Below are positions 16,921 through 60,815 of a stretch of DNA of 64,000 bases, one piece after another (within the stretch, counting starts at the first letter, position 1; each line of letters starts with the position of its first letter). The notes beneath the pieces were generated by a model. The model saw only the letters and a program-made list of their open reading frames with translations. It searched no databases and was not told the origin of the DNA. This DNA comes from Thysanoteuthis rhombus (lineage: Eukaryota > Mollusca > Cephalopoda > Oegopsida > Thysanoteuthidae), in the NCBI GenBank assembly GCA_963457665.1, contig OY735202.1, forward strand, positions 54,209,631 through 54,273,630, read 5' to 3'. The position numbers and the translations under genes are program-made.

Positions 16921-16977
16921 GTACTGCAGCGAATCGTAGCCCTGTCATGATATGCAAAAGAGAGAGGAGACGTTAGC

Positions 16978-17160: not shown

Positions 17161-17164
17161 CCAA

Positions 17165-17180
17165 ATAATAATAATAATAA
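17165..17180. repeat. (TAA)n between the two R4-like copies
   Basis: TAA run that ends copy 1, followed by a short GAA run (17180-17189) and then directly by the 5' end of copy 2. Confidence 0.9.
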
Positions 17181-17188
17181 GAAGAAGA

Positions 17189-18115
17189 AGGTGGTAGGGG
17201 GCTCATCAGCATAAAAGATTGTGTCCAGAGAGCTAAAGTAGTCCTAGATAGATATGTGCAAACAAATAGTGAAGAAATCATAAAGAGCGCGAGGGATAGT
17301 GCAGCAAACAATAAAGTAGAAAACAATGGAACAGTACAGCAAACTAGAAAAGAAAGTGGGAAGGGAAAAAATTGTACGGCGAGTTTAAAAGACAGATAAA
17401 AGATATAGCAGACGAGAAATCATGGACGTGGTTACGAAAGGGGAACCTTAAGAGAGAAACAGAATCGCTCATCATGGCAGCCCAAAACAAAAGCATAAGG
17501 ACAAACTACATAAAAGCAAAAATCGACAGAACTCAGACAAACAGCAAATGCCGCATGTGCGGTGAAAGAGATGAGACAGTAAACCACATAACTAGTGAAT
17601 GTAGTCAGCTCGCCCAGAAGGGGTATAAGCACAGACACGATAGAGTAGCAACGATGATACACTGGGAACTAAGTAAACAAATGGGATTCAACCATGGGGA
17701 AAAGTGGTATCAGCACAAGCCAGAGGCAGTTTTGGAGAATGACAACCACAAACTACTCTGGGACTTTGACATCCAAACTGACCACCTCATCCAGGTAAGA
17801 AGGCCGGACTTAGTAATAGTAGACAAAAAAAGGAAGGCCTGCTAAATAGTAGACGTTGCTGTGCCTGCAGACCATAGAGTAAAAAAGAAGGAGGGTGAAA
17901 AAAGGGAAAAATACCAGGACCTAGCAAGGGAGTTAAGGAAAATGTGGAACATGAAAGCCAGGGTAGTACCGGTCATAGTGGGAGCACTAGGAACTGTCCC
18001 CCAAACGCTGAGGGAGAGACTGGAGGAGACCGGGATTAGGGGGAGGATAGAGACCGTACAGACCACAGCGCTACTTGGAACTGCACGGATACTGAGGAAG
18101 GTGCTAGAGATATAA
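17189..18115 (+). pseudogene. R4-like ORF 3' part, copy 2
   Basis: Begins at GGRGLISIKDCVQRA, keeps the CCHC knuckle (CRMCGERDETVNHITSEC) and the endonuclease core RRPDLVIVDKK...IVDVAVP. The stop TAA between these two blocks (17843-17845) is at exactly the same codon as in copy 1. One A is missing near 17349 (AAAGTGGG against AAAGATGGG in copy 1), while the A-run downstream has six A, the length needed to stay in frame. Confidence 0.85.
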
Positions 18116-30000: not shown

Positions 30001-30365
30001 AACAGACCCGTAAGCTGAGAACCATGCAACGTGCACATGAAAGAATAATGCTGGGCCTCACATGGAGAGACCACAAAACAGCACAACACATCCGGGAAAA
30101 GACAAGAGTTAGAGACATCATAGAATCCATAAAAAATCTCAAATAGCGGTGGGCTGGCCATGTTGCAAGAATGGCTGACAATCGATGGACATCACGACTC
30201 ACAACATGGATTCCCCGAGACCATATGCGCAACCGAGGCCGGCAAAATATTAGATGGAGAGATGAACTAGACAAGTTCAGGAAGTACTGGCTCCGTGACG
30301 CCCATGATAGAGAAGTGTGTCAAATCCTTGGGAAGGTCTATGTCCAACAACGGACGCTAAAAGAC

Positions 30366-34503: not shown

Positions 34504-34596
34504 TTAAACAAGTATGGACTTAGATGCCAGGCTCATCTTTTTACGTTTTCTTGATACTTCTTCATCTTGACTGTTACTTATTTCAAGGTCTTCAAA
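34504..34596 (-). CDS. HORMAD1: HORMAD terminal exon
   Basis: 93 nt including the TAA stop; acceptor ATAATTTCAG. Encodes an acidic FEDLEISNSQDEE segment, then VSRKRKKMSLASKSILV. A C-terminal basic-hydrophobic end is where HORMADs carry the closure motif that the HORMA domain of a second molecule binds; whether this is one is inference. Confidence 0.8.
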   Translation of the reverse strand, partial: FEDLEISNSQDEEVSRKRKKMSLASKSILV

Positions 34597-37500
34597 CTGA
34601 AATTATAATTAAAAAGAAAAATCAAGATACAAATTTATATTGTATATGTAGAAAATGATATTTATCATTGAACAACAAGTAATAATTTACGTTTATTTCA
34701 TAAGCAGAAGGTATTACTGCAATCATCAGAAGTTTTCATTCATATCACACAAGTATTGTTGATTATGCTTATACATTGACTGACCAATGGAAGGAAAAGC
34801 ATTGCTTTCTTTATTGTTTGAAGTTAGAAGATAGGGCAAGTGAACTTCCCTTACTAAGACCTGGGGATCGAATTGGTGAAATAATAGATTCATTGTCACA
34901 TTTAGTTGTGAACTATGTTAGTTGAAGTATATTTGGCTTTTAATTTTATTTACTATAAAAATACATTTAATTTGGAGAGAAGCATCAATTGATATAATTG
35001 ATCTAAAACTTCATCCTCATGTTATAAAATGTTCTGTACAGCATTGAAACCTTATGCATTTTCAATGAAAAGTTACACATTTTTAAATAGTACTGATTAT
35101 AGAATATTTTACAAAAAATTATTCACTAATGTTATTTAGGATTGGAGTTATCATGATATACATCTTGTTTGTGTCTTACATGCAAAAAATTATCATCATT
35201 AGATAGTTAGATTTGAATATGTGTTCATGTGTGTGTAGATCACTATACAGTATTGAGCTGATATCTAACTGCTCAGATAATCTCTCATCATTAACAAGAA
35301 TCTATGAAAACAGTATTTTCAGAAGGAGGGGAATTAACACCAGTACAAATCATACAACTACCTCTATTGTATAACATGATGGCCTCATATCATCTAGTGA
35401 GATGTGGATAATAACTATCAGTAACTTAGTCAAGATGCCATTACCCAATAATTATTGCAGTATATTTATACTCTACTAACATGGCTCGAGAAAAAAATTC
35501 AAATATAACAACGCATGAAAGCAAACGATATTCTATAGAAATTTCATAAAATAAAAATTATAAAATTTGTTCTGGTCTTTACAGAATTCTCTTCATATTT
35601 AAAAAAAAATTCCCTGGAAGACTCCAAAATCACCCTAAAGCAGTTCTTTGCTCAGAAAGTACAAGTCCAGGGAGGTTGGGATTATCAAGTTGCTTGAAAA
35701 ATGGGAAAGGTGTAATAACAGTAAATAAGTTGTTCAATAAAGTTGATGTTAAAAATAACAACATTTGAATTTTTTTTACTCGATTAATTGAACCGACTTT
35801 TATAATTAACATAATTATGGGGAGTTAGCTAAATGCAACTGTGAGAAACATTTTGAAACTATAAAATAATAATGACCAAAGCAAAGAAAAAATGCATTAC
35901 TACTATAAACTTAAACAAAATTGATTTAAAGAATATTACTACTATGTACATAATCTGCGTATACTCATATAGCAGGATTGAACAAAATAAACTGAATTAC
36001 AATTGTATAGAATTATCCAAAACATCAAATTTTACATTTTATTCTTATTCTTTTTATCATATAAGTTGCTCAAATAGTAATAAACATTTTTCTTTTAAAT
36101 TAGGCACATATACTTACCGAAGTGGAAGCTGTTGGTATAATTGATCTTTTCCTGCTTCGGGATACTCTATCTGAATATACTGGAGGAGAAATCTAATAAA
36201 AAAAATTAACAGATTTTTAGAGAGAGGGTAGATATATTGAATTATTTATCCTTTTCAATATCTAATATTTCATCAGATACTATTGATTGACCTGGCCTAG
36301 AGCATTCATTATTATAAAGAGAACCAATTAAAAAAATGTTTCACAATAGTGATAGAATAAATCTATGTCTAACTGCAGTGGATCATCAAGTAATAATTTA
36401 TACAAGGCCAGATAGTGTGTTAATGTGAGGATGAGAGATTAATTCACCCTTTCACTCATTCAGGCAGCTGGTTTTTAAGGCTCACAAAGCATAGTGGCTA
36501 CAACATAAGGGATAGATTTATGTTTTGGGTTTTTTTCAGAAACATTGCAAACATTTGTAGATTATAAGATATGGATTTCATTTATATCAAATTTATACAA
36601 ATATAATGATCATGTGACCTCATTATCTATGTAAAACAGCAACCATATTCAAGCATGGTTTAATTTTCAATAAGAAAGAAATGAAAGTTACATCCAATTT
36701 TGTCCCATTGGTTCTGTAACATCTATTCCCATGTGAAACTGACTGCCAATCAGTTGCTTTTGATCTCACCAAGCCATGTATTGCTCTAAGTAACATTGTA
36801 TCACTGTCTGAAAAGTCACGATTGGGTAGGTGGGTCAGTAAAGTCGAGGGTGACAGAGAGATAAGCCATATTTTTGACACAAAATTTAAAGCTCACCTAC
36901 GTATGCACCTGGCCTGAATGAGTTCAGGAAGAGACAGGATTAATGATGCAATCATTACTCATGCAACTCATGTTTTTATTTTTTTTTATTATTTAGAAAT
37001 GTGCACTAAAAAATATTACCTGAAAATAGTTGCATTTCAAATAATTTAAAAAATAACATAAATCAAACAAATATATTAGTTACATGTTTCTAAATATTCT
37101 GCAAAATCCAAGAAAGATACGTAGAAAAAGAAGCCAATTACAATGTGCAGAATAATATTTCTTAAAAATCAGTTAAACATTAGAATAAAACCCCCAAGTA
37201 ACTTACAACATTGTTTCCCTTGTTTGAAATATCAGAATTCAGACATCTTCTGTTTGATAGACTAAGAGAATTTGCCTGTTTTGTCAATTCATTGACCTGG
37301 AAAAAATTCAAAACAAATACATCTTTTCTATTACAGTTATCACAAAATCACAGTAAATATGAAGAATTACACCTCTTACACTTTCTTAGCAAAGATAATA
37401 CATATCAAACCCGAGAAACATAAGAATATCACTTCCAAAAATGAGGTTGAAAATTCTGGTATGGCAGACCATATCTAGAGAGAATTAATTCTATCAGATG

Positions 37501-40500: not shown

Positions 40501-43500
40501 AAAAAGTTATCATTTTAAGAAGAGAAAAAAGTTTCCAAGGAAGTAAGATCATATTCAGTGAGATCAGTTCATTCTGCATCAGAAAAATATATTTTTACAA
40601 TGATTTTGTCAATTATGATTTAATAATTCTTAACTAATAATTAAAATTTAATTAAAATTCATGAAGAAAATTAAAATACCATCATAATCAAAATAAGATG
40701 CAATCATAATAATGTTTAAAATTGAAAATAAGAAGTTAAATGAGATCTTAAACTGAAGGCTGCGAAAGGCTTCTATGGTTCTGAGATTTATCTCTGTTTG
40801 GTATAAATCCTGGATTCTGGTATTCTCTACAAAATGTCAAACTCATAAAAAGTGATGCAAAACTGCTAAAACAGAAGAGAATATCTTTTAAAGGTTTGAT
40901 TTTAATCATAAACCCCAAATAAGACTCTCTTCAGTAATCATTCATCTCTGTTCAATAAATTCCCTTCTTTCCATTTGGTAATTTCTTGCCAATAACATTG
41001 TTAACGTTAACTTTATTTGAAGAATTCCAATATTATGTTGCAATTAATGAAAGAAAATCTTCCTAACAAAAACAAAAAAAGCTCTAGAATAATATGAAAG
41101 ATAAAATTTTTTTTCAAAGATATTTCAGAAGTATATATGTATAGAAACTCTGCTTTCGATAATTCATTTTTAAAAAATTTTATTGATTTATTGGCCACTT
41201 TTTCCAACCCCTCAAAAGCAGTTGATCTTTCTTCATCTTTATAACATCATCTCTTATCAAATGAATGTGTCAGCAACAGGGTATAATGGATTTCAACAAA
41301 TTTTCCTGGTTTAAGTTGTTAAAAATCTTGTATATTAATAGGATGACTAAATAAATTGTTTTAACAATTTTTTTCAGTTTTCAGTCTTTGAATCAGGTGT
41401 GAATAATTCTATAGTAGAATCTAAAATTGGTTTAACCTTTCAAATGCACCATTTTATTATGATTCAGTTTCACTCTTTGCAATGGCAAAACTAAACATCT
41501 CTATCCATTTGGAAAAAAAATTGAATGAATAAAAAGTTTTAATTTTATTTTTGCATCATATGTGAGGTCTAAAATAGTATAATTTCTAATTATAAGGTAC
41601 AATCAAACAACATATTTTATGCAAAAATGAAATCAAAACCTTTTATTCATTCTATGATTTCATAGCAGCAAAAAAAAAAAGACAAAATTATACCTTTAAA
41701 TTGAAAAACTATACTTTTTAGAAATTTTGTATGATTTTTGGGACCATTTCAAAGCAAATATTAGCAGATATTTTTAGTTTTTACCTGACCTCCCTTTTAA
41801 AAGCAAGGAAAAATTCCCTAGACAATAACTGGGCCAGAAAAAAGAAATAGTTAAATTGTGATTTGATAAAATCTTAGTTCAAACTGATTGTTGGTTAAAC
41901 AAAACTAAACAAAACCAAACAAAATAAAGAATATTAGAATTAGGTTTACCTGTCCTTGGGCAGGTGCTGAATCTACTGAACATGTCTCCATCTATGATGA
42001 ATAAATGAAAAAACCAGTTGAGGAAAAATTCATGAAGTACTTTTAATAAATAGAGGATGTTTAACTGATTCTGAAAAGTTTGCTTGTGAAGTGAATTTTT
42101 GATCACTGAACATGAAATGGTGACTGCGATTAAAGTAATGAAAGAAGGGTCACAATGTACAGTTAAGCACAACTAGCTAAAAAATGTAACTGGAAGAAAA
42201 GTCACAGACTAAAAGTAATGGGTAAAAGATTTTTTTTAAATAAAATAAGTAATATTAAATTCAATTTTTACTAATAAAGCAATTCAATTTTTTTTGTAAT
42301 TTTGAATGAATAAAGATTCTTTTGTGATTTTATTTACCATATTTAGCCATTATGTAAGCTGTCATGTAGCTATGAAATATATTGTCTGTTAGTTTGATTT
42401 TTTTTATAACTTGAATAAATATATAAATATATTTTTGCCCATATCATATACTTGGTTCTTATTTAGCTTTGAAAACACCAAGTTCAGCTGTCTTATTTTT
42501 TAAAAAAGCAAGCAATATTTTGCCTTCCAGTTATGAAAAAGTCATGGGAAAATATTGATTTGTGACTTTTCTTCCAGTTACTTTTTTTTAGGTAGCTCAG
42601 CATTTCTCCCATGACTTTTGTTCTGGGTTTTGACAAAATATCTAAAAGTATAAATTTACATCTAATGCAATTTATTCAGATTTTAGTTCATATACCATTC
42701 CCATCTGTAATCATGACAAGAGACTGAAATATGAAATACAATTTTTTATGAAAATTCCAAATTATAGGCTTTTAGAGGGCCACTACTAAAATTGTTCAGA
42801 GGAAAAAAAAAGAAAAATATTGCATTGTTACAAGTACAATGTAAATGAACAAAATGATTGGAGAGGGAGAAACAATGAGGAAGAGAATGCGTTTGTAAAA
42901 CATTTTTCATGAGTTTCCTTGTAAGACAGACACAATTTATTTTTTTTAATCCATACAGTCATCAGTTTAGCATATTGAAGATATTACAGGAAATTAACAA
43001 GTAGGAATGAGAGATGACCCAAGAAATTCTCCAATGGGCAATGTTATAAGAGTGAACATTTGAAAAATAAAATAAACTCACTTTTTCACAAAGCACATTT
43101 TGCTTTGTGATTTCAGAATTCTTCTTTTTAAAATATTGTGGAATGCCCACTGATAGCAACTTTTCAACATTGACAACTTTGCTATTTCTGAAATTCAAAA
43201 AATAATTTTCAAATAATAGAAAAGGCTTTATGAATTGATTTTATACTAATTAGAAGAAAGGTAGTGAGTGGTAAAAAATACATCTATGTGTAACTTATAT
43301 AATATTGAGCAGTGCTGTAACTTGAGCCGTTGGGGCCCCGGGGTAGACTCCTTGATTGAGGGCTCCTATAAATATTCTCTTTTTTCCCTACGAAGTTGCA
43401 CTGAAGTGACTTGAGGCAAAATATATCCAAAGCAAGAACATATTCCTGGATTCCACCTTTCTACAAAATTTCATTGAAATTCATGGAGATATCGTGTAGA

Positions 43501-46500
43501 GAAACAAGAGCAAACATGAAATAGAATGCAAGAATATCTCTTAATCAAAAACAAAGTCATTGATCCACTCCAAAATTTTATCACCAGTGTCAGTCCCTAT
43601 GATATCTCAAAAGTTTTCCATGAATATCAATGAAATTTTGTGGAAAGGTGGGGTACAGAATAATAAAGATGTGATTAGGGGGTAGATCCAAGAATTCATT
43701 CTTGATGGGGAGATATTTTTGCATTGAAAAAAAAAAAAATTTTGTATTCACTCCTGTCCGTATGATATCTGGTTCTTCTGTTTTGTTTTTTTCCATCCTC
43801 TGTTTTTCGTAACCTGTCTAGATCACAACAAATTCTTTTTCATTAAAGATACTCCTATTTATACATAGTTATGAAATAGGTGCCCATTTTGGCTCTGCCA
43901 TTTGAAATGCCCATTGTTCTACACTCACTCTATTCAGAGGAGGGTGATTCATCTGTGGAATTACTGGAACAATCATACATGGCATAATAACAGAAAATAC
44001 ATATTATAATCATCAAAGTTTTTGGCTTGTTCTTTAATTTCAATCCTGTTCCTTTAGTATTTAAAGGGGTCCAAATTTGGGTGAGTATTTTTTTGAGTGT
44101 GGAAAATTTTTAAACAGAGGAGGAAAAAAATTTAGACTCAAAATATGGTTTTGCCTGAGACCTCTGTGGGGCCCCTTCCTTGCTAAAGCTCCTAGGTATT
44201 GCCCCACCTGTAGTAACGGCCCTGCATTTTAGTGATGTAATTGAAGCATGGCTTATTGAGAATTTTAAGAAAAATATTGTTAACCAGTTACAACATTTCA
44301 TTCAACATATACATTCCTATTGGGGGAAGTAAAGATTTTACAATCACAAAAACTATTCAGTTACTAGTCTTTTAGCTATTTTATATACTCTATTTTATTA
44401 ACAAATGGGAATTTTTCTAATACCGTTTTAATTTTCCTGATGATGGTTTTATAAAACCTTCCATTTTTAACCTGTTGAAAAATCCATGGGCAACAGTATT
44501 CTCCACTCCTAATTTCTTGGCTAAACCTTGAATTGTAAATTTGTTTTCTTCAAGGCAAACCAAGAGAACGCGGCGCCACAAACAAACTGACTAAAATGAA
44601 AATAAGAATAATATATTAGAGTTATAAATTTTTTCATCAATACTGAATCTAAAAATAGATAATTAATGATAAAAATAATACCTGCTCTACAAGAAAATTT
44701 TTCTACAATCATCAACAAAGAAATTTAGGAAATAACTAGTTAACTAATTAAAATTATACTGTTTCTTTGAACTACAAATCAAGTCAGTGCCTATGATTAA
44801 ATAACTCAGTCATTATTAAATGAATATTCATTTTTTTTTTTGAATCAGGCAATTCAAATTGTTTAATTTGCAGATAATTTGAGTTGAAATACATGGATAT
44901 GTGAATATATTTGTGCAAAGAAAATATTTTGATGGAGTCATATACATACTTGCTGATCTGACAGGGTCATTTCCACCAAAGAAGGATCTGTGCATAGTTT
45001 ACCAATCAACTGAGAATTGAATCATGAAAATCATTAGAGGTGAGTAAATAAAAACATAAATGACTAGCAGGGATACTCGGCCTTGCCCAAGGGCAAAAAT
45101 ATTCTGAAATATAACCGAAGAGGAAAAATATACTCTTTGATATATTTCTTCTTACGCAACACAAACAATAAAAACTATGTACGTATGAAAAAGTAGCTGT
45201 AACAGAAGAAATGTTCAGATGCATAAAAAAGAACAAATGATGTAGTCACTTAGTTTAACAGGCCTTCTGGATATGCTACATAAGTGTTTCTCCCATTGGT
45301 TCCCATTGGTTTCCCATAGAAAACCCAATATAGAGCTGTCCATAGGAAAAGCATGGAGAACTGCTATGTTAAATTCCAGGGCAAAATTGTGGCTGACAAT
45401 TTGGAAGATTGACTAGACTTGACAAAAAATGACTTCAAATGAAAGTCAATATCATATTGTCTTTGACTTTCACCAAGAAAAGATTTACTCCTATGCTAAA
45501 TTTCAGGTACATAGGTGCAAAATTATTGCCAAAGACTTGAAAAATTTAGTAGAAATGATGTGAAGACTTTGAATGAACTCCAAGGTCAACCTCGCTTGAC
45601 CTGTTACCTTTGATGTGAGATAAACCCATATGATCAATATCCGCAATCTTGGTGCCAAATTATGGCCCATAACTCTGAAAATTGGCTACAAATGACCTCT
45701 TGTGACATCAGTGGTCAACCAGTGTATATCACCATTGCCATGGGGAGATGTAAGTTTATGCTCAATTTCAGTTTCATAGGTGTTAAATTAAAGCTACAAA
45801 AATTTATGATTATTTCAAAATGACAAGGAATGACCTCTGGTGACCTTAAATGACCTTAGAAGTTAACATCACATGGATTGTGATCTTTGTCGTAACAAGA
45901 TATATTCATATGCGACATTTCTGCATCCTTAGTGCAAAATTATGGCTCATAAGTCTAAAATTCCACTGATGGCCAGATTACCTCTGGCGATCTCAAATGA
46001 CCTCAGAGGTCAACTCCATATTGCATATGATCTCCGCCATGGAAAGATGTAGCTCCATGCCCATTTTCAGATTCATAAGTGCTAAATTGTGGCCTTAAAC
46101 TTAGAATATTATTTTGAAATGACCAGAGAGACCTCAGATATCAGCGTCACTTCGACTGTGAGAAGATATACCCATATACTAAATTTTAGGCATCCTCGGC
46201 ACAAAATTGTGGCCTACAATCATTAGTTGAAAATGACCTCTGGTAACCTTGAATGACCTCAGACTTCAACCTCACATAGGTTTATGCTTCAAGTTGACCT
46301 CTCCTCCGTTTACATGCAGAATATTAGGTTTGAATATTACAGAGAAGAGGCATGAATAAACAAACAAAAGGCTCAAATAATTGTATAGTTAAATTCAGAA
46401 GCTTTATGAAAACAAGATTCCTCAATAATGATGGAGAAATCTGAATTTGAATTAATATTCAAAATAAAAGTCATATCAAATTTACAAAAATTAAAAGATG

Positions 46501-49500: not shown

Positions 49501-52500
49501 CATCCAAACTGATTTTTACTTTAAGCTGATGCTTGAAATAAGCAATCAGTTGCGTGGGAGAAAACTGCTTGCCCCCATGGAATCCCTTCTGTCGCATCGT
49601 CTGAAACACAACTCTCATAATACTGAGTAAGCACATAAGAATATAATATTTTTTTTTTTCCAGCAACGGCACCATATTGCAACGCTCAGCACTGGCTGAG
49701 GCAAAAAAGATTCGCAAAGAGTGTAAACAATGTTACCTTCAATCAGTCCACACAATGGGCTCACAATGCTGGATTGAAAGAAGGCGTGCTCAATGGATTC
49801 CTCTAAATCACTGCAACGCATGCATTCTGAGCGATCAACTAGTCTTGCTGACCCAGAGCACGTTTCAAATGATCAGCCAAGAGGGAAAACTCAAGAGAAA
49901 GCAGGTGTAACATCACAAAGATTTTCTGCTACCAGTCAAGATTCATCAAAACATGCACGTGTGATAGTAAAATTTTTTGAGATGTAACAGCTGCTTTCTC
50001 CTAAATTTTTCTCTTCACCTTCAAATTGTCACTTTCATCAACATTCTGTCAGATCACTTCACATCCACAATATAAACATATATATATGTACAGATACAGG
50101 CATATATCCATTACTAAATCCATAACTGTCACATTGAAAAGAAACAAATAAACTGAGAATAAATGCGATGAGAATTTGGAGTAAAAACAATTATTTGGGC
50201 CTTTGCATTACTGGTAGCTGTTTAGCTCAATGATAAGAGCAATGCTATGTAAGAGGCTACCTTATCGGTTGCAGGTTTGATTTTTGTAACAGCCTAATTT
50301 TTTCTTATTGTTTATTCTATTTACATTGTCTAGTTGTAGTGATACATTAAATCATGTAACAACGGGAGATCATTTCAAATGAGAGTTTTTATACAATATA
50401 ACACAATAATTATTCTGTTAGATCATATATATATCCATTCCTTAATCTATAACTGTTGCATTGAAAAGAAACTAATAGACCGAGAATAAACGAGATGAGA
50501 ATTTGAAGTGAAAACAGTTATTTGGCCTTTGCATTACCGGCGACTGTTTAGCTCAATGGTAAGAGCAACACTACTTTGAAACTGCTACCCTATCGATACC
50601 TGCAGCAGCCCCATTTTCTTCAATTGTTTATCCTATTTACGTTCTCTAGGGTGAGCGATACATTAACTGTGAAATGAAGGGAGATCATTTTAAAGAAGTT
50701 TCTATCTAATACAACGCAATTTATAATCATATATATATATAAACATATATATATTTACATATATATTTACACAATACAAATCAGGAATACACAATAGTAT
50801 GATGTAATATAATATAATACGATATCCAATGTGTGATGGATTTATTTCATAAAGTGTTTGATACATCCATCATTAAACATTGAGTTGATTTAAAATAAAG
50901 CTTAAAATATGATGAAGTGAAGAATTCCCCACACAAACCCATTTATTTTTCTGCCCTGTTGGGGCTTCTTCAGGCGGATGATTCAGTTTATTTTAGATCC
51001 CTAATAGGGACGTTTTTTTGGGGGGGGGGTCTACTTTTCTAGAGTGTAAGATCTTTCTCTTATTCTATTTATATATCTTTTCTTTAACATAGATACAATA
51101 ACACTGACATACAAGGAATTCGCAAACAGCCATCAATCCATTCAAGAAATTGTACAAGCACACATATACCACCCTTTTAAGAAAAGAAAAAGCAGTCTCA
51201 CCCACATCAACCAAATAGATTAAATGAAAAACAACAGCCAACTTCAACCCTGCCCCACATATCACCTATCCATTAAATACTAGACATGACCTCTCCATTG
51301 TATAATAGAAAATTTTTTAAAAATTTCCTGAGAACTGATTATTTTAGCTCCTCATTGCCCTTTTTATCCAGACAAGCCAAACATCCACAGGAAACAAACT
51401 ATCTCTTACCCCATTTCACACAGACCTTTCTTTTTTAAAACCAAATTTTCTTCTAACCTACACAGATAGAAAACACCTCACCTTCCGCTCCTACTAAACA
51501 ACCAAGCAACAAAAATATATCCCCATTTCTTTCCTCAGCCTCAAACATGTAAACAGCAAAACAAACTTTCTGTGAACTGGTGCAAATATTTTCTCAGAAA
51601 AAGATGTCTGGCACCAGCCAAAATGTATTGAAACACGCCCATGGAAAAATAAAAAATTTTGAGATGTAATACCTACTTTCTTTTGAGTTCTTCTCTTCAA
51701 ATTATCATTTTATAAACGTCAATCAAATCACTTCACATCCACAATACAAGCATATATATGTATAAATATATATCTCATTATGTTGTGGAAAAGTTGATGA
51801 TATGGAAAAGGAAAAAGACTTGAGACTACTTAGTACATCTCAAATTTTTGTGGTAAAGAGTGTAATAGCTTACCTAGGAGTATTTTCTGAATGGTATGAA
51901 TTTTTTTCATACAGTTGAATGTCCAAGCAGATTAATAGTTTTTTTTCCTGATATTAATAAACAGAAGTAAATGTATTGTTCTATATTTTCACGTTTTTAT
52001 ATTAATGATTTTGTATGTGAATGTCTGTCTAAACATATATCTGTATCTATCCATATATTTTTGTATAGGTAAGCCTAGCCACACAAAGAACCCACATAAT
52101 AATTCAATTTGGCTCTTATCTTGTTTTTAACACTATACTTATCGTACATTATCATTTTCAAGATAAATATGCTTTTATTGATTTTGTAAACAAGACGGAT
52201 TAATTTTTCCAATTATTTTTTCATTGATTTTAGAAATAAAATAGATTTCAAGAAAATAACTTCGAAATGTATTTATTCCAATATGCAGTAAAATATAAGA
52301 TATTGATAAAATTTCACCAAATTTGATATTCCGTAATTTATTTTGACCAAGACTGTAAATAATCATTTATTCTGTTTCCAATTTTTTAAATCATGATTGT
52401 TTTGCTATCAATTCAGCATCTTGAAATTTTTACCTTTGAGCATGATGCACAGTAATGTGTAGAGGGTGCCTCATTTTCATCTAATAGAGAAAAACACACT

Positions 52501-55500
52501 GCGTGTTGCCAGTAGTTGCAATTGGCACACAATATCATCAAACCATCATCCTGAAATAAAGGAAGTAGAAAAAAGCTTACATGCAAATAAACAACAGAAT
52601 ATAAGATATGATCGTGAATGAAAAAATCATAATTATACCTGAAACAATTACACAAAAAAATCATCACTAAAAAGACATATCATCGACTATACTGATTTTT
52701 ATTGGTGACTAGTAAATTCCCCCAAAGTGACTCGTCTTCAGTACAAATTCATCTCTATGCCACACAAGTATATGTACACACATAAGCATAGGCACACACA
52801 CAAGTTCTATATGCACACATATATACTACATGAGAACACAGACACATCGCATACGCACACATATACTGACTACATCAGGAGTATGAAACATGCAGCCTGT
52901 GGCCCATATTTGGCCTGCCGATCTCTTACATGTGGCTCATGACACATTTCTGTCCCAGATATATTTTATATTTATGTTGTATCATTTTTTTTTAAATTGA
53001 AAAAAAAAAATAGGAAAAGTGAAATGAATTTTTTTATAAAAATCTAAAAAATTGAAATTCCATATAGATTAAATAAAAACTTTGGCATAGGGTCCCTACA
53101 GGTCGTTGCTAAGTTTCGCATCAGTGATAGCTATGAGAAGTATCCATGCCCCAAAATTTATTTGAAATTCATCAACTTTATATCAGAGAATAGGGGAGTT
53201 AACTCTCATTGTTGTAGTACTTAGAATCGAAGTTGCACCCCTTGAATTCAAAATCATAGTCGCTGAGTAGAAAAAGGAAGTGAATACAAAGGGCCAGTAA
53301 TCAAAATGAGAACAAAACCTGAAAAATAAAATGTACATTCACACAAGCACACATGTACAATAAGGAACATAAAAGTAAATAGATATTTATAGAATTTGCA
53401 TGATCTTGGTGACACAAAATTTAGAATTTAATGCCAAACAGAACATAGTAGCAGAGAGGAGACACAAAGTAGAAAGCTATGGCAATAGCTGAACTCCCAC
53501 AAGGACTCTACAGAAGAAGCTGTTGGAATGTGACTCCAATAACTGGGAGAGAAATCAATGACTTCTCCATGTATTAAGGACTTCTTGAAAATATAAGTGT
53601 TCTGTTCAGTTCTCTATCTTATGATCAACTCAAAGGTTAACCTTGGACTTTTATGCTTTGTTATTCAACAGATAAATTTTTGTACTTGTCTTCCTCCCTA
53701 TGAAAAACATGATAAGGACTGTTGACATAACAACTGCACTCATATCTTTTCTTGAATCTTATGTAGCAAACAACAATTCATATACAAAACACAGATGAAT
53801 TCTATCAAAAGATACAAAAGAAAATCTATCAAATAAACTTCCTTACTTACGGCCAAGCACTATCTTCTGGTAGAGCAAACTCGACTGTCAAGAACAAGAA
53901 AACATCACATCCAAAAAAGACAACCAATGCATCCTCCCAATAGTCACCTGTGGGCAGAGACATGAAACCTAACCAAAAGATTGAGCCTTAAACTGAGAAC
54001 CATGCAACATGCACAGGAGAAAATCATGCTCAACCTCAAATGGAAAGATCATAAGACAGCACAGTATATTAGAGAAAAGACAGGATTCCGCAATATTATA
54101 AGAACCATTGAAAAACTCAATTGACAATGGGCTGGACATGTTGCATGAATGTCAGACAATCACTCGACATCACAACTCACAAGATTGATCCCTGAAGATC
54201 ACTTGCAAAATTGTGGCTGACAATGATGAGAAAATACTGGCTCTGCGACACCCATGATAGAGAAATCTGGAAAATTTCGGGGAAGATCTATGTCCAATGA
54301 TGGACGCAAAAATGCTGTCGATGATGATCAGAATAAATATCAAATTACTATTATCAAATTATTTTATACCAAAATAAATTATGGGCTCTTTCATAAAACT
54401 CCTATATGTCTCGCATTTAAATAACTGCTAAGGAAAATTTTAAAAACATACAATTCAAGAAGAAAACAGACAAAACAAAACCATGACTTGGCTTGAAATT
54501 TCAAAGGAGAATTGCAGGCCTTTGATAGTGCCAAAACTTTAACAATTAATATCATAAGGATTTGAATAAGAATTTCCTATTTTTAAATTTAGAAAAATTC
54601 ATATATTCTTTTTTTCTCAAATCTTATCAACATTGCCTGCAAAAGTTTATCACCCAATAACATATCAGCCAAATCGATATGATCAAGAAATTGCATGTAA
54701 TCTCGTAAAATTCTACACTATAAATTTCTATACAAATTACTGCCAAAAGAAAACCACACATTTTCCCAACAAAAAATTATTCAAACCATAAAAAATCAGT
54801 TTTGAGATTAAAAACTATATGAGAACTGGGCTATGTAGTGAATAAGTGCAGTTATTATCCAATCAGAGACTGAGAATCTTACATCAAGATGCCAAGCTCC
54901 AGGAGCCTAAAAGACACAAATCAATTACAACTGCCCTTGAATGAAGAAACTATTTCATTCTCCATGTTTCCAACCCCTTTTGCCTCCAAGTACACAAGTG
55001 AATATTTTCTATCCTTGGTCAACATTTTTTTGTGTGTATTTTTTTTAGTTTCAAGAGAACCCTGTTTCATCAACTGTTTGTTAAGATGACAAAAAATGCA
55101 ATTAAAAAAACAATTCCTACTTCTTTTCACAAAGTAAGCTTTTTCATAATTGATTGCCATGACAGTTAGAAGAGAAAATTTAAGCATGCCATGTATGGAT
55201 ATGGATGGGAAAATCCAATATTGTTTATAACTGAAATAGAGACAAAAGCAAATGATTAGACAAGTAAATAGGATGTATATTTAATGATTCAACAAATGAG
55301 ACATTCATGAATAATGCATCTCAAAATGAAAGGAAAATGCAGTAACATTAGTAAGATGGATAGTGGTATAAACCATATATGCACACACATACGCAAATCA
55401 CATGCAGACACATGCCACATGCACATGCACATAAACATACACACTACAAAAACAAGCATACACAGGTGGCCTGAGTCGGAATGTAGTGTGTGTATATGGC

Positions 55501-58500
55501 ATGTGTATACATGTGTCTGGAGTGTATGTGAATGTTACATGCATATGTGGCATGTTTCCTCATATGCACGTGTGTATATACAAATGTGTGTGCTCATGGT
55601 GTGTATATATACATTGGATGCGTGCTTAATCTATGTGTGTAAGTGTGTGATAATTTATGATACATGTGTTTGTGCATGTATCTGTGATGTGTCTATACAC
55701 ATGTACATGTGTATTCATGTACACACATATCTGTCCATTATGTGCAAGTATACATGTGAATGAGTAAATATTAGTGAGTGGTAAGTGTTCATGTGTGGAT
55801 ATATGTTATTTGTGTATGTGTGTGCATATGTGGCATGTGTGTACATTAGAATATGCAGTATATGTCTGTAGTTAGTTTGGGTGTATGCATGTGTGTATGT
55901 GGCATATGTTGGTTTTCCTATCCGTTGTACTCGTCCATTTGCTGTTCTATTCCAAATATTTAATTGTCTGGTTAATTGCCTTTCATTGGTCTCCCAATTT
56001 GTTGTACCCATCCATTTTTCATATGCTTCTTTATATATACACTTGTACATGCATGCAGAGATATAAATTACTCCAATTTGGGGCAGGAAAACACCCAACT
56101 TAGTGACTGTGCACACAGTTTGACCATTTGGATATTTAGAGAGTGGCAAACCTCTCTACAAGCATCTGCCTCTATAATCTAATGACATACAGATGTCTCA
56201 TCACCTCACTTTGTGCATCTTTTGTTTTTCTCTCAAGCTCTGTGGCAAAGTGGCGATAAGTGCAGACTTGACTGGTTGGAAGCATGCATAAATTTGCACA
56301 CAGGTGGTAGGAATCCTATCTTGATGTCATTATCATATCTTCATGGACAGAGACTGATTTGGGTAGGGATTCTTGCATCTGAGCAGCCTAGTTCAGGAGA
56401 GAGCTGCTCACCAAGGATTATAGGAAAAAGCTGGAAAAAGTGCATAAAGAAAATTCTGTCTGATTTTTGCTGGTTAGTTTGCTTCAGCTAATGCCGGTTC
56501 ATGAAATGCAGGAATGAAAAAAGTTACAATACTAAAATAGAAGCAAAAAAGTAATTATCAATCAACATCTGCAGCTGGAATGTTAGAACCCTTTTGGATT
56601 GTGATTCATTTGATAGATTGGATTGGAGTAAAGTGCATGCAACTAGAGAATTGCATCAACTTAACATAGACATAGCAGTATCCTCTGAAATGCGCCTTTG
56701 AATCACTGAAGTATCCTCTGGTTTCACATTGTTTGAGGCCAGAAAATGGAAGGAAGTGTTGGCTTGCCATAAGAATTAATTAGAGTGCCCAAATAGCATT
56801 TATGAGTGCATTATGGAGCTAAGATCCCCTCCATCTTGTGGACGACATGTATTTTTGTTCCTTAGTTCATGGTCCAACTTTCCTGGCGAGTGAATATTGT
56901 CATTCTATGGCTCAGTTCCAGGGCATGAAAAACTGATCGTTCTTGGTGACTTTAATGCATAAGTTGGGATGCAGCACAGGATTCTGAGTGCACTTGGTCA
57001 TTATAACATTGAAAACAAAAAGAGTAATTAGTTACTCTTACTTCAACTCTGTTGGGAACTTGGCTTAGCTATCTGTAACACCTCCTTTCATCAGAAACTA
57101 AAACAAGATAACATGTTTCATCCAAGATCCAAACAGGGTCACATGTCTGATTTCATTCCACAGATGAAAAGTAGCTATCTGATTTTTTTTTACAATTTTG
57201 CCCATAGAAATCTATGATAGCCCCAAACCTGGCCAATTTTTAAAAAATCATATTTAATTAGTTTATAAAATTATTTGTATCAATCTCTCCCTTGCTTTAG
57301 TGTAATTGAAATAGTTGTGTATAATTATGTAATGTTCATAATACACTTGCACAATGTAAACAATCAAAACAGGATGAAAATAAAGGTACAACTTTAATGT
57401 ATGGATATGGGAAAGGCTGATGATTATAAGTACATATATACTGGAATATATATGTCAAATATGACTGTTATTTTTGTGTGGAGACTAAAGCTATTTTATT
57501 AGTTAATTTATTTTTCAATAATTCAAGTACCCTAATTTCAAGTTTTTTTTAAAGTCTCAACTCAACTCAAGCTGTTTGTGATCAGACATGAAGTCTGAGG
57601 AGTTTCTATGACATAATCTTCATTGTCATAATAGGAAGGGGAATGAACCAATGAAATGCTTGAGCACCAACAGAGAAGAAATCAGCATATATGCTTATGA
57701 TATGGCTAGCTCCATAGGCAAAATCTATTTTTCATATTATTTCTAAATTATTTTGGATTGAATGATGATGAATATAGCTTATCAACAGAACATTTTACAT
57801 ACGTTTCTCTTTATTTATTCAGTTTTAAGTATAAATATTTTTGAATTGCAAAAAGAACATACAACATGAATCTTATCATAATTCAGTAAAAGTCTGACTG
57901 TCTGTATGTATGTACTCGCCAACTGTAAAAACTATTAGACAAATGTAATTTTCTTTTGGTCTGGATGTGACACTGACCAATGTTTCTAGCAAATTAGTTA
58001 CAGAAAATCACTCCATAAAATATGTTTTTGGTGGGTTTGATTCAGGGAGGGCCAATTTACATGAAAATTCATTATGCTAAAATGATCTCAGACATTTCAC
58101 TAATTTAATAAAAAAACATTTCATTCTTTTTTTCAAATTCTTGAATTCAAAATGTGACGTACGGTTGTGTTCAAAATCTATAAAGAATGTTCTTTTTTCA
58201 TTCAAAGAGATTAGAATCAGAGGGGGAGTTTTTTTTAACACTTTTAGATGTCAAAATCTGGGAGAAGTATTCTTTTACTTTCAGGGGTCAAAATCGAGGG
58301 GGAGATTTTTTTTCAATCTTAGGGAACAAAATTGAAAGGTAACTTATTTTCCACCTTGAGGTATCAAAATCTATGGGGAACTTTTTTTCATTTTCAATGA
58401 TCGAAATCAAGAAGACTTTTTTTCACTTTTAGGGGTCAAAATCAAGGGAAATATTTTTTCACTTTTAGGGGACAATTTTGAAGGGGTACTTTTTTTTCAA

Positions 58501-60815
58501 TTAAGGGGATGGGGTCAGAATCAGCGGTGGGGGGATTTTTTCATTTTCAGGGTTGACTCCTCAGCAAGAATTTTTCAACTTTTTAGAATCAAAATCGACA
58601 TCTTTTGTAATATTAAACCCTTTAAAAAGAGAGGCATTAAATCAATTTCAAGAACAAATTAGATTAAATACGGTCTGATTTCCATCTATATATCTTTGAA
58701 TTTGAAAGATTCTTTTTTTTGACATCAACTTATTCCATCCATTAAGACGTATTTGATCTAGTTTATATAACTGAGCAGTTAAGACCCAATTCGATAATAA
58801 ATGAACAATAATTCTTGAATTTTATCAGCTTACGTGAAAATATTTTTAATCTGATCATTTTCCTGCTTCAAGATTTGTTGAAATTATTATCCTCATCATC
58901 ATCATCTTCAGACTGTTTTTGGACATAGACCTTCCCCAGGATTTCGCCACACCTCTTTATCATGGTTGTTGCAGAGCCAATACTTTCTGAATTCACCTAG
59001 TTTGTCTCTCAGTCTTGTAATCAGCTGGCCTCAGTTATGCATGTGATCTCTAGGGATCCAAGTTGTAAGTTGTGATGTCCATTCTTGCAACATGACTAGC
59101 CCATTGCCATTTCAGTTTTCTAAAGGATTCTATGATGTCTCGGACTTCTGTTTTCTTCCTGACATACTGTGCTGTCATGATCTCTCCATGTGAGGTGAAG
59201 CATGATTTTTTCATGTGCCTGTTAAGGTCAGTCTTTTGGTTAGATTCCATGTTACAGCTCAATAGGTGACTATCATGAGGATGCATTGGTTGTATACCCC
59301 TCTTTTTAGGACAAATGAGATCTTCTTGTGTTTGAAGGTTGAGCTAGAAAAAATAGCAGAATACAAAATGCTCCTCGCTGTAGTATTTATCGACTTCAAG
59401 AAAGCCTTTGACTGTGGAAATTCCCATGGTCATGAGGGCCATCAATCTACAAGGTGTAGACCCTGTATATTTCAGAATACTGCAACTTATATACAGTTAC
59501 AGCAGCTCCTTTATCAGGTTACATAAAAACTCTGAGCCCTTTCAGCTTCATAAAAATAAAAAGAATATCTGAGCAATCTCAGATTTGCAGATGACATCGC
59601 CTTTTTTGCAGAGAACCTACACAACCTCTAATTGATGCAAGAGGAACTAAATGGAGAAAGAAAAAAAGTTGGCCTACACATGAATTTAGTAGAACAAAGG
59701 TCATGTGCAACAATCACGTCGGAAATAAGAATACAACATTGAAGATGCAGAACTGGAGAAAATAGGCTACTGCATGTACCTAGGACAATAAATCTCAATG
59801 AAATGCTCTAAAGAAGAAGAAATTAACATTCTTTAGTTCAAATAGAACAAACCAAAAATTGAGGGAAATGACAAATATAGTGACTAACACAAACTGACTG
59901 AGATAATGGTAATGATTAGCCAGAGAAAATCTAGCAACTTGTAGATTTACACATATTGTTCATTAGCTTTGTCATCCTTATGTTAGTGACCAGCTTGCGG
60001 ACTATAATACAAGAAAGTGGAACCTTGGTAATTTTGAGAAATCACAATTTGATTTCGTTTTCATCAGGGAACTTAAGAATGGAAAGCTGTTTATATACTT
60101 TTCCATTATAGATTAATCAGAACCTGATCCTTAGACTCAATTTCTATACAATAGTACCCCTTCATATGACAGGTATTTAGGCTCAAGAAAGACCACATTA
60201 TAATAAGTTCATCAATGGATAAAGTTGTTGTTTTCATCACAAAATCAAAAAAATCATGTGTAAAAAAATGTAATCATGTGTTAATTGATTGAAAATTGAA
60301 GAAATTTGATATTTTAGTCATATTAGGTCTTTTGATAAGATTCTGTATTCACTCTCATTTTTCTGGACAAGTTGGCAATAGTATATATAGGTAAAAATGT
60401 TGGTATCCACCAATCAACCACCCTTTATCACAAACTGCATTATATTGAACTACGTTATATTGGAGGACTCCTGTAGTAATTAACATGAGTGTTTTGCAGA
60501 AACTTCATTGGAAATTAATCAGCTTATCCATAAGCATGCATATCAATATGTCTGCATGTGTGTATATTTGTATTTGTTTATATACTGATGTATTCAAGCA
60601 TACAGTTGGTATTGATTATGAATGACTAAAATAAATGATATCATTGTCATTTAATCATGTACAGTATATAATGTTATAATGATATTTCTTTAATCAGTTA
60701 TGATATAAATGAAAACTAATGAATATATTTACCTCATTGCAACCACATGGGCAACATGCCATACCTTTATCTTCAGTACTTTTCTTTGAACTTTTATCTA
60801 AAATAGTTTTGCTGG
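34504..60815 (-). CDS. HORMAD1: HORMAD/Hop1-type meiotic protein, 3' part of gene (nine exons)
   Basis: Nine - strand exons (60733-60815, 52434-52550, 44950-45009, 44424-44590, 43082-43187, 41950-41991, 37207-37296, 36118-36192, 34504-34596) each have AG/GT borders, and their phases agree (split codons only before exon 1 and between 44424 and 43187). They join to 276 codons plus stop. Domains: a C4HC3 PHD finger across the first two exons, then LWRRVLL...GLAKKLGVE.TVAHGFFNRL.MEGFI, a winged helix, then VEKLLSVGIPQYF, then a Ser-rich and basic tail. PHD plus winged helix is the chromatin-binding region known from yeast Hop1 and kept in HORMADs of various invertebrates; mammalian HORMAD1/2 lack the PHD. 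HORMADs coat meiotic chromosome axes and promote break formation and synapsis. The HORMA domain is not in the seen exons and must be encoded upstream. Gene-name choice (HORMAD1 versus generic HORMAD) is uncertain. Confidence 0.85.
35570..35815 (+). mobile_element. Mariner-like remnant, 3' end
   Basis: Resembles the end of the 7.4-kb mariner copy: LQNSL-, NSLEDSKITLKQFFAQK and, in another frame, GIIKLLEKWEK..NSKYVVQ, which match the usual C-terminus of mariner transposases. Then comes typical mariner 3' UTR-like text (AAGTTGTTCAATAAAGTTG). The catalytic core is absent and frames shift at least twice. Lies in the last intron of the HORMAD gene. Confidence 0.8.
36118..36192 (-). CDS. HORMAD1: HORMAD exon: basic patch
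   Basis: 75 nt, 25 codons, phase 0; acceptor TTTTATTAG, donor TCG|GTAAGT. Contains SRSRKRS, a candidate nuclear-localisation signal, within a Ser/Pro-rich segment. Confidence 0.8.
37207..37296 (-). CDS. HORMAD1: HORMAD exon: Ser/Asn-rich linker
   Basis: 90 nt, 30 codons, phase 0; acceptor TTTTTTCCAG, donor GTT|GTAAGT. Encodes VNELTKQANSLSLSNRRCLN and an Asn-rich end. No domain; probably disordered. Confidence 0.75.
38530..39850 (+). mobile_element. Gag-like zinc-knuckle element, fossil
   Basis: A decayed coding stretch. Its 5' part, near 38560-38740, has a gag-like start (IPLFTPDNYGAWLQK, then LNDSAREAILEMDP). Its 3' part, near 39290-39640, has about five CCHC-like zinc knuckles, the last being CYNCGSLGHI followed by RDC. 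This order suits an LTR-type retroelement gag. A cellular multi-knuckle protein of CNBP type is the alternative for the 3' half. No LTRs, protease, RT or integrase were identified. Clearly broken and old. Confidence 0.5.
41950..41991 (-). CDS. HORMAD1: HORMAD micro-exon
   Basis: 42 nt, 14 codons (METCSVDSAPAQGQ), phase 0 both sides; acceptor CATCATAG, donor CAG|GTAAAC. Short and low-complexity. Supported by the splice sites and exact phase; could be alternatively spliced because skipping keeps the frame. Confidence 0.65.
42172..42597. mobile_element. MITE-like inverted repeat
   Basis: A 21-base exact inverted repeat, GTAACTGGAAGAAAAGTCACA at 42186-42206 and its complement at 42561-42581, with weaker match outward (CTAAAAAA on both sides). 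Interior is AT-rich and non-coding. A second 13-base palindrome (42537-42549 and 42607-42619, AAAAGTCATGGGA) straddles the right arm. Size and structure fit a small DNA-transposon derivative; no transposase. Confidence 0.6.
43082..43187 (-). CDS. HORMAD1: HORMAD exon: conserved block after winged helix
   Basis: 106 nt; acceptor TTGAATTTCAG, donor AAA|GTGAGT. The first base completes the split Arg codon. Encodes NSKVVNVEKLLSVGIPQYFK and a Lys-rich end. VEKLL..GIP.YF is a block I associate with the C-terminal part of the Hop1-like chromatin-binding region. Confidence 0.85.
43310..44224. mobile_element. Possible hAT-like non-autonomous element
   Basis: Ends read CAGTGCTGTAACTTGAG (left) and, reversed, CAGGGCCGTTACTACAG (right), imperfect terminal inverted repeats of the CAG-G-CGTAACTA type common in hAT elements. 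GGGGC-rich text follows inside both ends. Candidate 8-base flanks (ATATTGAG and CATTTTAG) match only partly. No transposase frame. It spans the intron 3' of the winged-helix exon. Confidence 0.4.
44424..44590 (-). CDS. HORMAD1: HORMAD exon: winged-helix domain
   Basis: 167 nt; acceptor TTCATTTTAG, donor CG|GTATTA. Encodes SVCLWRRVLLVCLEENK, then TIQGLAKKLGVENTVAHGFF and NRLKMEGFI, a helix-turn-helix pattern with a following wing rich in Lys. Ends with two bases of an Arg codon completed by the next exon. Confidence 0.9.
44950..45009 (-). CDS. HORMAD1: HORMAD exon: lead-in to winged helix
   Basis: 60 nt, 20 codons, phase 0 on both sides; acceptor AATTCTCAG, donor CAA|GTATGT. Encodes LIGKLCTDPSLVEMTLSDQQ. 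It continues directly from the PHD exon without needing another exon between. Confidence 0.8.
45330..46300. repeat. Diverged satellite, about 137-bp period, TGACCT-rich
   Basis: Seven anchor words like GCAAAATTGTGGC occur at about 45383, 45519, 45657, 45785, 45936, 46084 and 46204, spaced 120-151 bases. Units also share CATATRCTAAATTTYAGG and AATGACCTCTGGTGACCTT. Located in the intron between the PHD and winged-helix lead-in exons. Confidence 0.8.
46540..48230. other. Intron sequence, no exon seen
   Basis: AT-rich. A stretch at 47589-47738 reads as a hydrophobic peptide only with mitochondrial code (see findings). No HORMAD exon is needed here because the neighbouring exons join in phase. 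Confidence 0.4.
48240..48850 (-). mobile_element. LTR-like dispersed repeat, copy 3
   Basis: Diverged relative of 19020-19866, recognised by ordered words: TATGAATATGGACATGAAGAT near 48282, GCGGAGATAACTAAAATACTTTGA near 48593 and GTAGCTGAATGTATG then TGAAATAAAAATAGCAA near 48730-48780. Its first 230 bases are closest to copy 4. Fossil. Confidence 0.5.
49498..49890 (-). mobile_element. LINE fragment: RT C-terminal zinc-binding region
   Basis: On the - strand RCSDLEESIEHAFFQSSIVS and PLCGLIEGNIV match the zf-RVT type region near the end of APE-type LINE proteins (Cys, then E-EHAFF-C). A second frame gives MRVVFQTMRQKGFHGGKQF and then FKHQLKVKI. The two frames overlap, so at least one frameshift lies near 49620-49720. 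This is a different LINE family from the RTE and R4-like elements here. An AG/GT-like border pair made this look like a HORMAD exon, but phase and similarity speak against it. Confidence 0.7.
49895..50097 (+). repeat. Dispersed repeat family F, copy 1
   Basis: Resembles 51565-51770 in the same orientation: TTTTGAGATGTAA, then a C/T-rich stretch, then TCACTTCACATCCACAATA and a short TA-rich end. It lies directly beside the zf-RVT LINE fragment and may be linked to it. Confidence 0.65.
50098..50423 (+). mobile_element. tRNA-derived SINE, tandem unit 1
   Basis: Contains the same A-box-like (TTTAGCTCAATGATAAGAGC, about 50221) and degenerate B-box-like (GGTTGCAGGTTTGATT, about 50266) words as the 30.6-kb SINE, then TTGTTTATTCTATTTACATT and GGGAGATCATTTCAAA. 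It ends near a short TA run. The upstream 120 bases are also repeated in unit 2. Confidence 0.8.
50424..50745 (+). mobile_element. tRNA-derived SINE, tandem unit 2
   Basis: Head-to-tail with unit 1, period about 326. The A-box-like word is TTTAGCTCAATGGTAAGAGC (about 50547). The B-box is damaged. Ends in ATATATATAT near 50725-50745. Confidence 0.8.
51565..51775 (+). repeat. Dispersed repeat family F, copy 2
   Basis: Partner of 49895-50097; shared words TTTTGAGATGTAAT and TCACTTCACATCCACAATAC. Confidence 0.65.
52434..52550 (-). CDS. HORMAD1: HORMAD exon: rest of PHD finger
   Basis: 117 nt, phase 0 on both sides; acceptor TTTATTTCAG, donor AAAG|GTAAAAA. Begins DDGLMILCANCNYWQH and ends HYCASCSK. 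With the preceding exon it completes C-x2-C ... C-x2-C-x4-H-x2-C ... C-x2-C, a full C4HC3 set with the aromatic W two residues before His. Confidence 0.9.
52755..52865. repeat. CA-rich cryptic microsatellite
   Basis: Degenerate ACACAC/CATA-rich stretch with no coding meaning. Confidence 0.7.
53895..54335 (+). mobile_element. RTE LINE 3' fragment
   Basis: Begins at the equivalent of 29905 in the large RTE copy (ACCAATGCATCCTCCCAATAG shared nearly exactly) and runs through the MQ-A-E-I-L block and CTGGCTCTGCGACACCCATG to a short GATGATGAT end. Several indels and in-frame stops. 5'-truncated and old. Confidence 0.9.
55155..55380 (-). mobile_element. LTR-like dispersed repeat, copy 4 (partial)
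   Basis: Closest to the first 230 bases of copy 3: AGTTAGAAGAGA, ATGTATGGATATGGA, TAACTGAAATAGAGAC and AAAATGAAAGGA occur in the same order. Then it runs into a CA/TG-rich tract. Fossil. Confidence 0.55.
55376..55900. repeat. CA-rich then TG-rich cryptic satellite
   Basis: From about 55376 to 55465 the + strand is CA-rich (CACATGCACATGCACATA); from about 55484 to 55900 it is TG-rich (TGTGTATATGGCATGTGT). Open frames in this region only reflect the low-complexity composition. Confidence 0.8.
56568..57180 (+). mobile_element. LINE fragment: APE endonuclease domain
   Basis: One frame from about 56565 reads INICSWNVRTLLDCDSF, then NIDIAVSSEMRL, a stop, and ITEVSSGFTLFEARKWK. Further on, LGDFNA is followed by a stop and VG, then LLLLQLCWELGLAICNT and FHPRSKQGHMSDFI. 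These match the N-terminal APE-type endonuclease of a non-RTE LINE family, with an internal part missing and several stops. No RT follows in the window. Confidence 0.85.
57860..58800 (+). repeat. Dispersed repeat family E, copy 2
   Basis: Same ordered blocks as 32700-33450 (CTGTCTGTATGTATGTACTCG with AACTGTAAAAACTATT near 57900, and CTGATTTCCATCTATATATC near 58676). The middle is occupied by the 37-bp minisatellite. Confidence 0.6.
58211..58555. repeat. Minisatellite, about 37-bp unit
   Basis: About nine units of 34-45 bases with the pattern GGTCAAAATCRAGGGGGAGA, a T run, then CACTTTTAGG. Units are well separated in sequence, so the array is old. Confidence 0.85.
58890..59824 (-). mobile_element. 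RTE LINE fragment with 5' inversion
   Basis: 58890-59345 is the reverse complement of the RTE 3' end, from its (ATG)n-type tail (CATCATCATCATC at 58894-58906) up to the equivalent of about 29888. From 59346 to about 59824 the element continues on the + strand, covering the equivalents of about 29261 to 29847 (FIDFKKAFD and FADD blocks visible). This arrangement is what twin priming produces during LINE insertion. About 40 bases of the element are lost at the switch. Several stops and indels; inactive. Confidence 0.88.
59830..60732. other. Intron sequence, no exon seen
   Basis: AT-rich. Near 60380 about 45 bases resemble 11790-11830. Nothing else recognised. Confidence 0.4.
60733..60815 (-). 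CDS. HORMAD1: HORMAD exon: linker and start of PHD finger
   Basis: 83 nt. Acceptor TTTTTTTACAG and donor GAG|GTAAAT on the - strand. It begins with two bases of a split codon, so the upstream exon must end with one base. Encodes a Lys/Ser linker and the first zinc ligands in ACCPCGCNE, ending in phase 0. Confidence 0.85.

What the first reader, a model, noticed from the sequence alone, without database searches (positions are those of the whole stretch)
34504..60815. An animal HORMAD gene that keeps a Hop1-style PHD plus winged-helix chromatin-binding region
Seen: nine exons with consensus splice sites join in one frame into a complete C4HC3 PHD finger, a winged-helix segment and a VEKLL..GIP.YF block. 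Known: yeast Hop1 has a PHD plus winged-helix chromatin-binding region, while mammalian HORMAD1/2 have no PHD. Inference: this lineage retains the ancestral axis protein that reads chromatin directly, which bears on how meiotic breaks are placed in it.
Basis: partly seen in the sequence, partly recalled or inferred. Interest (0 to 1): 0.75.

Follow-up and report, generated by a model that had tools for sequence, protein, structure and literature searches.

The report
Animal HORMAD keeping chromatin-binding PHD region
This is the tail half of an apparently intact animal gene for a meiotic chromosome-axis protein that still carries a chromatin-binding region lost in mammals, an arrangement already described and crystallised in other invertebrates, so it is a sound but ordinary find.

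Summary
On the minus strand nine exons (34504-60815) splice in one frame into exactly 276 residues, with a complete C4HC3 PHD finger, a winged helix and a VEKLL..GIP.YF block. Past the window end I found ten more exons that supply a complete HORMA domain (PF02301, positions 1-209 of 209, E 2.7e-58). The 19-exon model is one open frame of 546 aa. The HORMA half best matches HORMAD1 (8j69, E 8.9e-72); the PHD-winged-helix half best matches the Hop1 chromatin-binding regions 9myp and 9mug (E 1.5e-42 and 2.9e-34). Eight of eight zinc ligands and the cage tryptophan are kept. A protein search of the genome listed 15 matches at E<=0.001, all in this gene. The inference is not new: Milano et al. 2024 report PHD-wHTH in 36 of 149 HORMADs, animals included, and Rodriguez et al. 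2025 solved it from a fluke and a sea star and showed bipartite nucleosome binding for the latter. The four C-terminal exons are the least certain.

The parts
60733..60815 (-). Exon 11 of 19 (model numbering): linker end and first part of the PHD finger (CPCGCNE); enters in phase 1, leaves in phase 0; holds an ATG just before the PHD
   Evidence: aligned to 9myp and 9mug
52434..52550 (-). Exon 12: rest of the PHD finger with cage tryptophan and remaining zinc ligands
   Evidence: (E 8.5e-12 to Hop1 region structures)
44950..45009 (-). Exon 13: 20-residue linker between PHD and winged helix
   Evidence: its TDPSL aligns with TDPYL of 9myp. Splice scores alone do not single it out (3 candidates on this strand, 2 on the other)
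44424..44590 (-). Exon 14: winged helix-turn-helix core
   Evidence: (E 2.6e-9 to 9myp); donor score low (-2.4)
43082..43187 (-). Exon 15: wing end and VEKLL..GIP.YF block, the last conserved part of the chromatin-binding region
   Evidence: aligns with VNKEKLKSEGFKKYF of 9myp
41950..41991 (-). Exon 16 (tentative): 14 residues
   Evidence: in-phase rival at 41828-41790 scores higher; no homology
37207..37296 (-). Exon 17 (tentative): 30 mostly polar residues
   Evidence: no homology
36118..36192 (-). Exon 18 (tentative): 25 residues, basic stretch
   Evidence: no homology
34504..34596 (-). Exon 19: C-terminus with basic stretch RKRKK and stop codon; the place where a HORMAD closure motif would sit
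   Evidence: (E 2.2 to recalled HORMAD1); acceptor score 0.3

Best explanation
The gene encodes the animal's meiotic HORMAD (HORMAD1/Hop1 kind) and keeps the PHD-wHTH chromatin-binding region. Shown here: an open 19-exon frame with a complete HORMA domain, a PHD finger with all eight zinc ligands and the cage tryptophan, a winged helix and its C-terminal cap, with no second copy listed in the genome searches. Inferred from its closest relatives: the HORMA domain docks on closure motifs of axis-core proteins and of itself; the PHD touches a histone tail, possibly H3 around lysine 4, while the winged helix binds nucleosomal DNA. The protein would thus load on chromatin directly and help place the axis, and the break machinery it recruits, there.
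For: HORMA exons lie on the same strand beyond the window. The model is one frame, 546 aa. PF02301 1-209 of 209 at E 2.7e-58 and PHD_5 at 1.2e-6, 28.9 bits against a cut-off of 27. HORMAD1 8j69 E 8.9e-72; 9myp E 1.5e-42; 9mug E 2.9e-34. Identities: 111 of 227 to HORMAD1 over the HORMA part, 70 of 146 to 9myp, 63 of 142 to 9mug; 8 of 8 zinc ligands and the cage Trp kept; sea star DNA-binding R463 and R477 kept as R, R480 as K. The 11-nt exon 8 was the only candidate among five lengths tried at the thresholds used, and it restores the PFH block of HORMAD1. All 15 listed protein matches in the genome fall in this gene. The sea star region binds nucleosomes through both PHD and wHTH (PMC12365614).
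Against: No transcript evidence. Exons 16-18 and the start in exon 1 are unproved; exon 6 and exon 14 donors score poorly (-3.4 and -2.4). The two fluke DNA-contact arginines are changed here (R389 to H, R407 to K). The published assays saw no strong preference for H3K4me3 nucleosomes and no histone-tail peptide binding, so H3K4me3 reading is a prediction even in relatives. The genome search for SYCP2 (PF18581) found nothing, but rang in none of 14 control genomes either, so it decides nothing. The genome searches score only the best candidates, so a diverged second HORMAD could be missed; one search did not list the MAD2-like locus either.
Confidence: 0.94

Rival explanations
1. Two neighbouring genes: a vertebrate-like HORMAD without a chromatin-binding region, ending after exon 10, and a separate PHD-wHTH gene downstream that is not joined to it.
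For: The largest intron of the model (about 19 kb, between 80051 and 60815 in joined coordinates) lies between the HORMA-side exons and the PHD exons, and exon 11 holds an ATG just before the PHD (M288) that could serve as a start. Milano et al. report HORMA-less PHD/wHTH proteins in Encephalitozoon. No transcript was seen.
Against: Phases agree across the junction (exon 10 leaves in phase 1, exon 11 enters in phase 1), and exon 11 is open on the 5' side of that ATG up to a good acceptor (5.3). HORMA-PHD-wHTH in this order is one protein in fluke, sea star and Nematostella (PMC12365614, PMC10907721).
Confidence: 0.04
2. Alternative splicing or alternative ends give both a form with and a form without the chromatin-binding region.
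For: Only that the two halves are separated by a long intron and that exon 10 has a second possible donor further 3' (79973).
Against: No evidence either way; I did not look for alternative ends.
Confidence: 0.1
3. A decaying gene or pseudogene.
For: A few weak splice sites.
Against: All 19 exons are open and in phase, all eight zinc ligands and the conserved blocks are kept, and no other copy was listed.
Confidence: 0.02

Closest known systems
Patiria miniata (sea star) Hop1 chromatin-binding region (chain 9myp; species assigned by residue numbering)
   Same: PHD-wHTH order, 70 of 146 residues identical, same cage Trp, same DNA-binding R463 and R477
   Different: R480 is Lys here; the linker is two residues shorter and the wing two residues longer in the alignment
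Schistosoma mansoni (fluke) Hop1 chromatin-binding region (chain 9mug; species assigned by residue numbering)
   Same: PHD-wHTH order, 63 of 142 identical, 8 of 8 zinc ligands
   Different: DNA-contact R389 and R407 are His and Lys here
HORMAD1 (8j69; mammalian by recall, the tool names no species)
   Same: HORMA domain, 111 of 227 identical
   Different: Mammalian HORMADs have no PHD-wHTH region (PMC10907721)
S. cerevisiae Hop1
   Same: HORMA plus PHD plus winged helix (PMC12365614)
   Different: Yeast has the HTH-C extension, a poorly conserved PHD pocket and a non-canonical DNA surface

Membership tests
Meiotic HORMAD (HORMAD1/Hop1) | Complete N-terminal HORMA domain | tested here: met
   PF02301 1-209 of 209, E 2.7e-58
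Meiotic HORMAD (HORMAD1/Hop1) | Closer to HORMAD1 than to MAD2-type HORMA proteins | tested here: met
   Best PDB match HORMAD1 8j69 at 8.9e-72; the other HORMA chains at E up to 0.001 are 8cxk and HIM-3 entries, no MAD2. The C12 HORMA hit reads like MAD2 by recall and aligns to this protein only at E 0.062. No tree was built
Meiotic HORMAD (HORMAD1/Hop1) | C-terminal closure motif | tested here: inconclusive
   Basic C-terminus RKRKK in exon 19; only a weak match to recalled HORMAD1 (E 2.2)
Meiotic HORMAD (HORMAD1/Hop1) | Germline expression and axis localisation | not testable with these tools
   No RNA or cytology data
PHD-wHTH chromatin-binding region of Opisthokont HORMADs | PHD with C4HC3 zinc ligands and conserved cage | tested here: met
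   8 of 8 ligands and the cage Trp kept; the DGLMI segment holding the cage Met is kept. Cage positions III and IV were not mapped one by one
PHD-wHTH chromatin-binding region of Opisthokont HORMADs | wHTH after the PHD with basic DNA-contact positions | tested here: met
   By sequence only: aligned to the end of 9myp; R396, R412, K415 at the sea star DNA positions, H391 and K411 at the fluke ones. No structure was predicted, so packing is not tested
Budding-yeast PHD-wHTH-HTH-C region | HTH-C extension after the wHTH | tested here: inconclusive
   None of the 16 PDB matches at E up to 0.001 has its best stretch beyond residue 434; no dedicated HTH-C search was made

The most novel reading that the evidence does not exclude
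In this lineage the HORMAD itself, rather than a separate H3K4me3 reader, links H3K4me3 chromatin to the axis and so sets where meiotic breaks form.
Probability: 0.15. Interest if true: 0.55.

Novelty: new member of a known kind. Interest (0 to 1): 0.2.

Why it matters
It adds an apparently intact HORMAD with a conserved PHD-wHTH region in another animal, in line with the published view that the region is ancestral in animals and was lost in vertebrates and some nematodes. It would matter more if this animal's germline can be studied: the 2025 paper names a test in an animal of the idea that such HORMADs steer breaks to marked chromatin as future work (PMC12365614).

Tried and rejected
A first splice-site scan with strict thresholds gave only 4 candidates and printed none; it was loosened. 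Separate-PHD-protein reading: rejected, since the Hop1 regions lead both with the PHD exon alone (8.5e-12 against 2.2e-8 for SET3) and with the whole protein (2.9e-34 or better against 2.5e-10). Second HORMAD or retrocopy: the C12 hit (L002) has stops inside and looks like MAD2 (recalled resemblance); the protein search listed no other locus. One search ran on a wrong file path and was redone. Frame mismatch between exons 7 and 9: solved by an 11-nt exon at 86937-86927 in joined coordinates; the same script sought an 8-nt PF-type exon and found none. Possible 5' exons ahead of exon 1: two ATG-to-donor candidates within about 4 kb, neither supported. Species: not identified; PF14999, which I recalled wrongly as reflectin, is Shadoo and found nothing. 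SYCP2 search: no match, uninformative. SSXRD (PF09514, number recalled) and SYCP3-type (PF04803, number recalled) searches did not complete. Paper searches for HORMAD with octopus, HORMAD1 with PHD and oyster, and PRDM9 with mollusc and H3K4me3 returned 0 papers each.

It holds an ATG just before the PHD, so the two-gene rival went from 0.03 to 0.04 and the best explanation from 0.95 to 0.94.

Full report
Location. The window is C5:54209631-54273630 of an unnamed 2.73-Gb genome in 514 contigs. It also holds a FAM124-domain frame (PF15067, E 2.3e-46), a family I recall as animal. The species was not identified. Below, 'joined coordinates' are window coordinates carried on past 64000 into the fetched stretches.

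Observation. With a simple splice-site scoring script on the minus strand, helped by PDB matches for the winged helix, I recovered nine exons: 60815-60733, 52550-52434, 45009-44950, 44590-44424, 43187-43082, 41991-41950, 37296-37207, 36192-36118 and 34596-34504. The PHD exon alone matches two PDB chains named 'HORMA domain-containing protein' (9mug and 9myp, both E 8.5e-12) ahead of 11 other chains in a list of 13. A read-through of the three minus-strand frames from 52432 to 43000 found the winged helix in one frame, with 9myp and 9mug as its only hits up to E 10 (E 2.6e-9 and 4.3e-7); the other two frames gave one hit at E 0.8 and none.

Beyond the window. The HORMA family search of the genome gave three matches: two on C5 past the window end, on the gene's strand and so on its 5' side, and one on C12. 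I fetched 60 kb past the window. The remaining pieces came from motif, phase and splice score: a 21-nt exon (98722-98702), a 27-nt exon (97249-97223) and an 11-nt exon (86937-86927, the only candidate among lengths 5, 8, 11, 14 and 17 nt with acceptor score above 2 and donor score above 0), and two exons at 80438-80342 and 80147-80051. The 11-nt exon restores the PFH block of HORMAD1. The complete model has 19 exons, 1641 nt with the stop, and 546 residues. The start codon at C5:54310063 is the first Met of the conserved block; an extra upstream exon is not excluded, since an acceptor-like site (score 0.3) lies nine bases before it.

Identity of the protein. The spliced product has PF02301 HORMA over 1-209 of 209 (E 2.7e-58), PHD_5 over its cut-off (28.9 against 27 bits), PHD just under its cut-off (23 against 24), and a MarR-type winged helix well under its cut-off (12.6 against 24.6 bits, E 0.13). 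Its best PDB matches are HORMAD1 8j69 for residues 1-227, and 9myp and 9mug for residues 287-434 and 289-432. I assign 9mug to the fluke and 9myp to the sea star because the published residue numbers fall on the right letters (W304 and eight ligands; W376, R463, R477, R480); the tool's listing names no species. The VEKLL..GIP.YF block is the conserved cap of this region (VNKEKLKSEGFKKYF in 9myp).

Copy number. A protein search of the genome listed 15 matches at E up to 0.001, all in this gene; 19 candidates were scored. The C12 HORMA hit reads like MAD2 (recalled) and aligns to this protein only at E 0.062. As one search did not list that locus, a similarly diverged second HORMAD could be missed.

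Controls and weak points. For the gaps of exons 16, 17 and 18, phase-compatible candidates at the thresholds used numbered 2, 2 and 1 on the minus strand against 0, 0 and 0 on the plus strand; for the linker exon 13 the numbers were 3 against 2, so that exon rests on its alignment. Exon 19 and the HORMA-side exons were not put through this control. The alternative exon 16 at 41828-41790 scores higher. No transcript data were available. Exon 11 holds an ATG just before the PHD, which a separate downstream gene could use.

Mechanism. Shown by sequence: domain order, zinc ligands and cage tryptophan. Of the three DNA-contact arginines tested in the sea star, two are Arg here and one Lys (R396, R412, K415); of the two tested in the fluke, one is His and one Lys here (H391, K411). 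Inferred from relatives: the sea star region binds nucleosomes through both PHD and wHTH, mutants in either reducing binding, with roughly equal affinity for unmodified and H3K4me3-analogue nucleosomes; peptide binding was not detected; H3K4me3 binding rests on AlphaFold 3 predictions (PMC12365614; Introduction and Results and Discussion read in full). That the same happens here, and that it places breaks, is inference.

Known or new. This gene is a further member.

Noticed in passing
joined coordinates 86937-86927, i.e. C5:54296557-54296567 (beyond the window): An 11-nt micro-exon encoding PFH plus two bases is needed to complete the HORMA domain; two other HORMA exons are 21 and 27 nt.
   Followed up: partly
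window 1766-3343, + strand: Long open frame with a FAM124 domain (PF15067, E 2.3e-46), a neighbouring gene.
   Followed up: no
window 14909-17845 and 27015-30146, + strand: Two LINE-like stretches with reverse transcriptase frames; the first also has a sub-threshold zf-RVT match, the second an endonuclease-like frame.
   Followed up: no
L002 (C12), about 345-1812: Pieces of what looks like a MAD2 gene (recalled resemblance).
   Followed up: partly
window 58232-58475: Imperfect 37-base tandem repeat, 6.6 copies, in the intron between the two PHD exons.
   Followed up: no
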